From Tepidanaerobacter sp. DTU063 (GTDB lineage Bacteria > Bacillota > Thermosediminibacteria > Thermosediminibacterales > Tepidanaerobacteraceae): 40,444 nt of DNA. The DNA is taken from assembly GCA_001512695.1 (NCBI GenBank), contig LFSJ01000187.1:6702-47145 (forward strand), in the 5' to 3' direction. Positions 5,410 through 25,990 of the stretch are shown piece after piece. The translations under genes were made by a program, and so were the position numbers. Below the pieces are notes generated by a model, which was not told the DNA's origin, did no database searches, and worked only from the letters and a program-made list of their open reading frames with translations. The stretch's first letter is position 1, and each line of letters opens with the position of its first letter.

Positions 5410-5773
5410 AAAATGACGGCGAGCAATGGAGTCCATTTACAAGCGAAGATATGACGGCACCATCCCTATAATCAAGACCTGTTGTACTAAAGCTCGGGTC
5501 TTCACTCCGCAGGGGTTCGCGGGCAATTCGGCATCCTGCCGAGTGCCTGCCAGCGTGCTTCCTGCACGCTGCCCCTGCTCCGCTTGCCCCGAGCTTAAGA
5601 ACAACTACGGTCTCGCTTAAAAGGGCTTGCTTGCCGTCATATCTTCTCTTAGAAGTCGCGGTAATCATCTATAGAAGATGCTTATTGTCACTGCCTCGCA
5701 GTTACACCTTCACTACAAAGTGGAGAAAATCATCTATAAAGTAATCACTTGCTGCCTTGCTCACCGTCATTTT
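5410..5773. repeat. Large hairpin repeat element, copy 1 (nested arms, shared core)
   Basis: This non-coding element fills most of the 580-base gap after ftsH. The outer arms 5410-5426 and 5757-5773 are complementary at 16 of 17 positions. Inner arms 5445-5459 and 5632-5646 are a perfect 15-bp inverted repeat. Further inward stems are 5475-5479/5609-5613, 5481-5485/5601-5605 and 5490-5498/5588-5596. The core 5499-5587 holds GCAGGGG/CCCCTGC (5509-5515/5572-5578) enclosing two hairpins: TCGGCA/TGCCGA around TCC (5528-5542) and CAGCGTGC/GCACGCTG (5551-5571). The core is about 85% identical by eye to the copy at 25782-25990, whereas the stems differ in sequence but keep their pairing. The interval 5647-5756 between inner and outer right arms has small hairpins and a direct repeat AATCATCTATA (5663-5673, 5728-5738). 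No protein is recognisable. Confidence 0.85.
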
Positions 5774-25781: not shown

Positions 25782-25990
25782 CTTGGTGAAGAAAACGGCA
25801 CCTCTTCCAGTAGTTAGACCTGTCATTCAAAAATTTGGTCCTGAACTCCGCAGGGTTTCACGAAGCTATGCGGCATCCTGCCGAGAGCCCGTCAGCGTGC
25901 GTCCTGCACGCTGCCCCTGCTCCGCTTGGCCCAAATTTAAGAATGACAACGGTCTAACTAATGGTAGCGTTTGCCGTCTTCTTCACCAAG
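25782..25990. repeat. Large hairpin repeat element, copy 2
   Basis: The outer arm CTTGGTGAAGAAAACGGCA (25782-25800) pairs with 25972-25990 at 18 of 19 positions. Inner stems are TAGTTAGACC/GGTCTAACTA (25811-25820/25951-25960), TGTCATTC/GAATGACA (25821-25828/25941-25948) and AAATTTGG/CCAAATTT (25831-25838/25931-25938), all perfect. The core 25839-25930 has GCAGGG/CCCTGC closing two hairpins, CGGCA/TGCCG around TCC (25871-25883) and CAGCGTGC/GCACGCTG (25893-25913). Core sequence and order of stems match the copy at 5410-5773 in the same orientation. Arm sequences differ, apart from GGCA and AGACC at the stem ends. It interrupts the prmC-sua5 neighbourhood. Confidence 0.88.

What the first reader, a model, noticed from the sequence alone, without database searches (positions are those of the whole stretch)
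25782..25990. Hairpin repeat family in which stem sequences differ between copies but pairing is kept
Seen directly: two elements (about 5410-5773 and 25782-25990), in the same orientation, share an approximately 90-nt core (about 85% identical by eye), flanked by the same order of stems. The stem sequences differ: AAGCTCGGG/CCCGAGCTT in copy 1 against AAATTTGG/CCAAATTT in copy 2, and GTTGT/ACAAC against TGTCATTC/GAATGACA. Aligning the first helix gives three positions where both partners changed (G-C to A-T once, C-G to T-A twice). Short blocks at stem ends (GGCA...TGCC, AGACC...GGTCT) stay constant. That is covariation, as in structured RNAs or hairpin DNA elements. Neither copy encodes a protein. 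I know no named class that fits. It could be an ncRNA, a hairpin-mobilised element or a non-autonomous mobile repeat.
Basis: seen in the sequence. Interest (0 to 1): 0.8.

Follow-up and report, generated by a model that had tools for sequence, protein, structure and literature searches.

The report
Flipping palindromic transposon-derived intergenic repeat family
A family of about 200-letter, Y-shaped DNA palindromes, descended from small mobile elements, has stayed at the same spots in related bacteria while flipping orientation and copying changes from one arm to the other, which mimics the covariation normally read as proof of a structured RNA.

Summary
The two elements belong to a family of about 15 copies in this Tepidanaerobacter-like genome, plus about 80 in relatives; 29 of 54 paired columns carry two-sided changes (0/500 shuffles). 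The RNA reading does not hold: non-Watson-Crick cells show no G·T excess (22 G·T, 33 A·C, 43 other), whereas SAM riboswitches of the same genomes do (26/3/6; P about 1e-7). Relatives keep the outer ends: TIR TGATTNNNGTGTARAAA with a 4-bp target duplication (10/20 exact; 0.95 by shuffling), so the family is MITE-derived. No transposase with these ends was found.

Unexpected: most copies lie at orthologous sites, yet in 10 of 14 orthologous groups the whole palindrome is inverted relative to its flanks. Elements are 88% identical between orthologs against 53% at four-fold sites of neighbouring genes, without detectable conversion between loci, so they are constrained. Best mechanism: replication template switching at the hairpin inverts the palindrome and copies one arm onto the other (known in outline from yeast, bacteria and rRNA genes). 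The DNA-level role that keeps the core is unknown; I guess a protein-binding palindrome.

The parts
25782..25990 (+). copy 2, whole palindrome (CM orientation +)
   Evidence: CM hit 180.6 bits + vs 41.3 bits -; fold z -10.5; G000:C30:32483-32691
25782..25800 (+). copy 2 outer left arm CTTGGTGAAGAAAACGGCA
   Evidence: sequence; pairs with 25972-25990
25972..25990 (+). copy 2 outer right arm TGCCGTCTTCTTCACCAAG
   Evidence: sequence
25816..25838 (+). copy 2 inner left arm AGACCTGTCATTCAAAAATTTGG (variable stem, conserved CCT and mismatch features)
25871..25883 (+). tip hairpin 1, CGGCATCCTGCCG, loop TCC
   Evidence: conserved in nearly all copies
25893..25913 (+). tip hairpin 2, CAGCGTGC GTCCT GCACGCTG
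   Evidence: stem changes on both sides in other copies
25931..25955 (+). copy 2 inner right arm CCAAATTTAAGAATGACAACGGTCT
5445..5646 (+). copy 1, whole palindrome; ortholog inverted in G001 (L054) and same-way in G002 (L061)
   Evidence: CM 200.9 bits
5410..5426 (+). extra outer inverted repeat around copy 1, left arm AAAATGACGGCGAGCAA, absent from orthologs
   Evidence: fold; alignment of group E
5757..5773 (+). extra outer inverted repeat around copy 1, right arm TTGCTCACCGTCATTTT

Best explanation
The elements are old copies of a MITE-like transposon family (terminal inverted repeat TGATTNNNGTGTARAAA, 4-bp target duplication) whose inside is a long interrupted palindrome ending in two TCC-loop hairpins (a Y shape). 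After insertion they are inherited vertically at fixed intergenic sites. At replication the hairpin lets the polymerase switch template between the two arms: this inverts the palindrome in place and copies a change made in one arm onto the other, so stems change on both sides at once without RNA-type G-U intermediates. The conserved tips, bulges and internal loops are kept by purifying selection at the DNA level, most likely because a protein binds the (cruciform or duplex) DNA; either orientation works. Shown: family, TIR and TSD, orthology, inversion, two-sided changes without G-U excess, constraint. Inferred: the template-switch step and the protein-binding role.
For: Family and covariation. 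TIR enrichment (16-27 per genome in G003, G004, G006, G008, G009, G010, against 0-4 for the reversed pattern); exact 4-bp TSD in 10 of 20 copies with good TIRs vs 0.95 expected (maximum 5 in 2000 shuffles); further TSDs visible. Orthologous sites and in-place inversion: searches (groups A, B, E, F, G, H, I, L, M; G013 vs G018 beside argS), 10 of 14 groups. Orthologs are mostly nearest relatives (86% vs 74% for paralogs). Single changes in stems 18 G-T, 29 A-C, 41 other next to 52 two-sided WC changes; SAM control 26/3/6. Constraint: element 88% vs four-fold sites 53%; columns just outside the palindrome 57% different, paired 12.6%, unpaired inside 16.9%; no conversion between loci detected (47 vs 46 sites). 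Longest perfect arms in flipped copies 7-20 bp: short for RecA exchange, enough for template switching. Mechanism precedent: PMC8604942 (arm homogenisation plus spacer inversion), PMC8794818.
Against: No single event was caught; inversion is inferred between species whose flanks are 72-88% alike. Template switching should also erase bulges, which instead persist, so selection must restore them or switch points must lie outside. Tip-loop flips are rare (about 3 copies: L008, L070, L131) although tips are good hairpins, which selection on the loops would have to explain. Double changes include many transversions, but so do those of the SAM control, so that test did not discriminate. No binding protein or function is known. 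Several genomes are MAGs or drafts, though arms of at most 20 bp make an assembly flip unlikely. No transposase with this TIR was found in the intervals examined.
Confidence: 0.6

Rival explanations
1. A structured non-coding RNA spread in many copies; pairing is kept by selection on the RNA.
For: Strong covariation, conserved loops and internal loops, constraint, single copies with the same skeleton but other stem sequences beside argS in G013 and G018.
Against: No G-U preference on either strand (22 G-T, 33 A-C, 43 other) against 26/3/6 for SAM riboswitches of the same genomes; orientation flips relative to genes; no Rfam family; TIR and TSD.
Confidence: 0.14
2. The copies are flipped by a site-specific recombinase or a transposase acting on the outer inverted repeats (an inverton or phase switch).
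For: Whole palindromes including the outer ends flip in L128/L132 and L164/L165; flips are frequent.
Against: Outer arms vary greatly between copies, so there is no fixed recognition site; in group F the outermost arm segment stays while the inside flips; copies in the same and opposite sense to genes are mixed and no promoter switch is apparent; Y1 transposases do not track the elements.
Confidence: 0.12
3. Neutral MITE debris: palindromes corrected and flipped by template switching with no function at all.
For: MITE ends with TSD; degraded copies exist (L011, L059, L125); spectrum of single stem changes looks unselected.
Against: Copies are far more conserved than four-fold sites (88% vs 53%), including unpaired columns, and conversion between copies was not detected.
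Confidence: 0.1
4. Apparent inversions are assembly errors at a repeated palindrome.
For: Some contigs end at a copy; G000 and G001 are fragmented assemblies (230 and 240 contigs).
Against: Perfect arms are at most 20 bp, below usual assembly k-mers; inversions also involve GT38 (G002) and the single-contig genomes G013 and G006; orthologs share locus-specific stem sequences.
Confidence: 0.04

Closest known systems
MITEs and small mobile repeats of bacteria (Correia/NEMIS, ERIC/IRU, RUP, RPE; review PMC2229807)
   Same: Short, intergenic, multicopy, palindromic, TIR with target duplication, no coding capacity
   Different: Different TIR and 4-bp TSD; partner transposase not found; in-place inversion at most orthologous sites and strong post-insertion constraint, which I did not see described for those families in the abstracts searched
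Quasipalindrome template switching (PMC8604942 in yeast; PMC7202029 in E. coli; PMC8794818 for rRNA hairpins)
   Same: Arm homogenisation and spacer inversion between short inverted repeats, two-sided changes in one event
   Different: There: short repeats with spacers of a few bases, or RNA genes. Here: a repeated family in which the whole roughly 200-bp Y-shaped unit is found inverted again and again
Small hairpin-associated inversions of chloroplast genomes (for example PMC12928735)
   Same: Recurrent flip-flop inversion at hairpins between related species
   Different: Organelle DNA; not a dispersed conserved family (abstract-level reading and own knowledge only)
REP/BIME elements with RAYT transposases (PMC2817692)
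   Same: Palindromic intergenic repeats, possible protein-binding DNA
   Different: Much longer, Y-shaped, with TIR and TSD; Y1 transposase presence does not track the elements
Parvovirus inverted terminal repeats (recalled, not tested)
   Same: Stem with two small hairpins that exists in flip and flop orientation with matched arms
   Different: Chromosomal, internal, no nickase or nick site identified; analogy only

Membership tests
MITE (non-autonomous DNA transposon) | terminal inverted repeats shared by copies | tested here: met
   TTGATTNNNGTGTARAAA strongly enriched in G003, G004, G006, G008, G009, G010; eroded in the window's genus
MITE (non-autonomous DNA transposon) | target-site duplication | tested here: met
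   4-bp TSD exact in 10 of 20 copies with good TIRs, 0.95 expected; not testable in the window's own copies, whose ends are eroded
MITE (non-autonomous DNA transposon) | autonomous partner with matching TIR | tested here: inconclusive
   no transposase between the TIR pairs whose genes were listed; not exhaustive
MITE (non-autonomous DNA transposon) | empty sites in relatives | tested here: inconclusive
   L124 site lacks the element in G001, G002, G008 but other repeats there blur the junction
Structured non-coding RNA (Rfam type) | covarying helices | tested here: met
Structured non-coding RNA (Rfam type) | G-U tolerated over A-C on the functional strand | tested here: not met
   22 G-T vs 33 A-C; SAM control 26 vs 3
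Structured non-coding RNA (Rfam type) | match to a described family | tested here: not met
   no hit, gathering or E<=1
Structured non-coding RNA (Rfam type) | transcript | not testable with these tools
   no RNA-seq
REP/RAYT system | REP-associated Y1 transposase in genomes that carry copies | tested here: not met
   PF01797 not found in G002, which has about 10 copies, and abundant in G005, which has none
Inverton (recombinase switch) | conserved recombinase recognition repeats | tested here: not met
   outer arms differ between copies

The most novel reading that the evidence does not exclude
A domesticated family of Y-shaped DNA palindromes serves a conserved chromosomal, orientation-independent function as extruded or single-stranded hairpins, its arms maintained by arm-to-arm copying at each flip, comparable to flip/flop of parvovirus terminal repeats but inside a bacterial chromosome.
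Probability: 0.2. Interest if true: 0.88.

Novelty: new variant of a known kind. Interest (0 to 1): 0.62.

Why it matters
Two-sided base-pair change is the standard proof of a functional RNA. Here a dispersed family passes covariation tests, yet its change spectrum, in-place inversions and transposon ends point to a DNA process. It gives a natural set of orthologous palindromes for measuring template switching and spacer inversion over evolutionary time, offers a simple counter-test (G-U against A-C, with a same-genome riboswitch control), and poses an open question: why a transposon-derived palindrome stays conserved while free to flip.

Tried and rejected
Known RNA family: no match. Plasmid, phage or virus origin: no match. 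RAYT or Y1 transposase: no correlation. Autonomous transposon between distant TIR pairs: the three intervals whose genes were listed hold apparently unrelated genes. Transition/transversion ratio of double changes as a test of templated change: the SAM control shows a similar ratio, so it does not discriminate. Gene conversion between copies as cause of conservation: same-genome sharing 47 sites vs 46 homoplasy. First SAM control had mixed strands and was redone. Empty-site search with L008 gave no clean two-sided empty site. The L026/L027 matches in G007/G011 (T. acetatoxydans-like) cover only one short arm of the core and were not counted.

Full report
OBSERVATION. The two elements are real and fold far better than shuffles. 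Whole-genome search found 14 places in the window's genome, one search added two, and there are copies in two congeneric genomes, other genera of the family and one genome of another family of the class. In 25 copies 29 of 54 pairs have two-sided changes; no shuffle reached the observed covariation, and sliding the partner destroys it.

ANATOMY. From outside in: outer arms (consensus GGTGAAGATGACGGCA / TGCCGTCATCTTCACC), an internal loop, arms CAAGACC / GGTCTTG, a helix with a constant two-base bulge, an AGCTTGG / CCAAGCT helix, a large internal loop, and a junction with two hairpins, both with TCC-type loops. Copies in other genera continue outward into terminal repeats TTGATTNNNGTGTARAAA with left- and right-specific spacers. 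That 18-mer is enriched well over the reversed control, occurs in facing pairs around elements of about 51-290 bp with very different insides, and is bounded by a 4-bp target duplication in 10 of 20 testable copies, against 0.95 expected. The family is therefore MITE-derived. In the window's genus the outer ends have eroded and the palindrome has not.

ORTHOLOGY AND INVERSION. Flank comparison placed most copies of the genus at orthologous sites. Locus-specific sequence makes orthologs nearest neighbours in most cases (mean identity 0.86; paralogs within a genome 0.74). Yet in 10 of 14 orthologous groups at least one copy is inverted relative to its flanks: A, B, E, F, G, H, I in the genus; L (G009/G004), M (G004/G006, weaker scores), and the single copies beside argS in G013 and G018. 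Window copy 2 (group A) is inverted in G001 and same-way in G002; copy 1 (group E) likewise. In group L and in G013/G018 the outer ends moved with the inside; in group F the outermost CTTTGT / ACCAAAG stayed. Longest perfect arms in flipped copies are 7-20 bp.

RNA OR DNA. If pairing served an RNA, G-U should be tolerated over A-C on one strand. Stem cells of the element hold 22 G-T, 33 A-C and 43 other mismatches (two mis-registered or constant non-WC columns left out); SAM riboswitches of the same genomes hold 26, 3 and 6 (Fisher P about 1e-7). Cells are related by descent, so the P value is indicative. Between orthologs there are 52 two-sided WC changes against 88 one-sided changes to non-WC pairs, the latter 18 G-T, 29 A-C, 41 other. 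This is what one-sided mutations followed by copying onto the other arm would give. Template switching between inverted repeats is known to homogenise arms and invert the spacer (PMC8604942), to occur at quasipalindromes in E. coli (PMC7202029) and to create double changes in rRNA hairpins (PMC8794818).

CONSTRAINT. Between orthologs the element is 88% identical while four-fold degenerate sites of neighbouring genes are 53% identical. Columns just outside the palindrome differ at 57%, paired columns at 12.6%, unpaired columns inside at 16.9%. Sharing of states between copies of one genome equals homoplasy (47 vs 46 sites), so conversion between copies does not explain it. Something selects for the sequence after insertion. 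Elements are intergenic, mostly between co-directional or convergent genes, in both orientations relative to them, so the selected property should be orientation-independent. I propose a protein-binding palindrome; this is inference.

CONTEXT IN THE WINDOW. Copy 1 follows an FtsH-like gene and a terminator-like hairpin and precedes a YdcZ-family exporter gene; copy 2 lies between a prmC-like gene and the Sua5/YrdC threonylcarbamoyl-AMP synthase gene.

VERDICT. Covariation confirmed, RNA reading not supported, transposon origin supported; in-place inversion and constraint are the surprising parts; template switching is the best mechanism; function open.

Noticed in passing
window 5630-5673 and 5695-5738: A 65-bp-period imperfect direct repeat on the right side of copy 1, inside the extra outer inverted repeat 5410-5426/5757-5773; absent from orthologs. 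Possibly the remnant of a second, nested element.
   Followed up: partly
L080, L081, L083 (G008); right arm only in L077, L079, L082: Arms contain a GTAGGGGCGGTCTTTGACCGCC-type sequence, complementary in both arms in some copies and in the right arm only in others, as if an insertion in one arm had been copied to the other.
   Followed up: partly
L210, L215, L208, L218 and others (G009, G006, G003): The same TIR bounds elements of 51-268 bp with unrelated insides, including an 84-bp minimal hairpin and one with a new hairpin in place of the tips.
   Followed up: partly
L204 (G009:C64:13155-14249): A 1.1-kb stretch between facing TIRs encodes a protein of 188 aa that looks like a nucleotidyltransferase and a 97-aa partner, perhaps a toxin-antitoxin pair; not checked against any library.
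   Followed up: no
L164 (G013) and L165 (G018): A single GC-rich copy between argS and a sigma-54-dependent PAS regulator gene in another family of the order, with the same skeleton, different stems, and opposite orientation in the two species.
   Followed up: partly
G006 complete genome (positions): Elements are mostly on the + strand below about 1.9 Mb and on the - strand above it (9 of 12), hinting at an orientation bias relative to replication in that lineage.
   Followed up: no
L012, L013, L124, L125 (G000): A G000 subgroup of copies, some flanked by another repeat, GGGACGTTTCGTTTGCC, possibly a recent burst.
   Followed up: no
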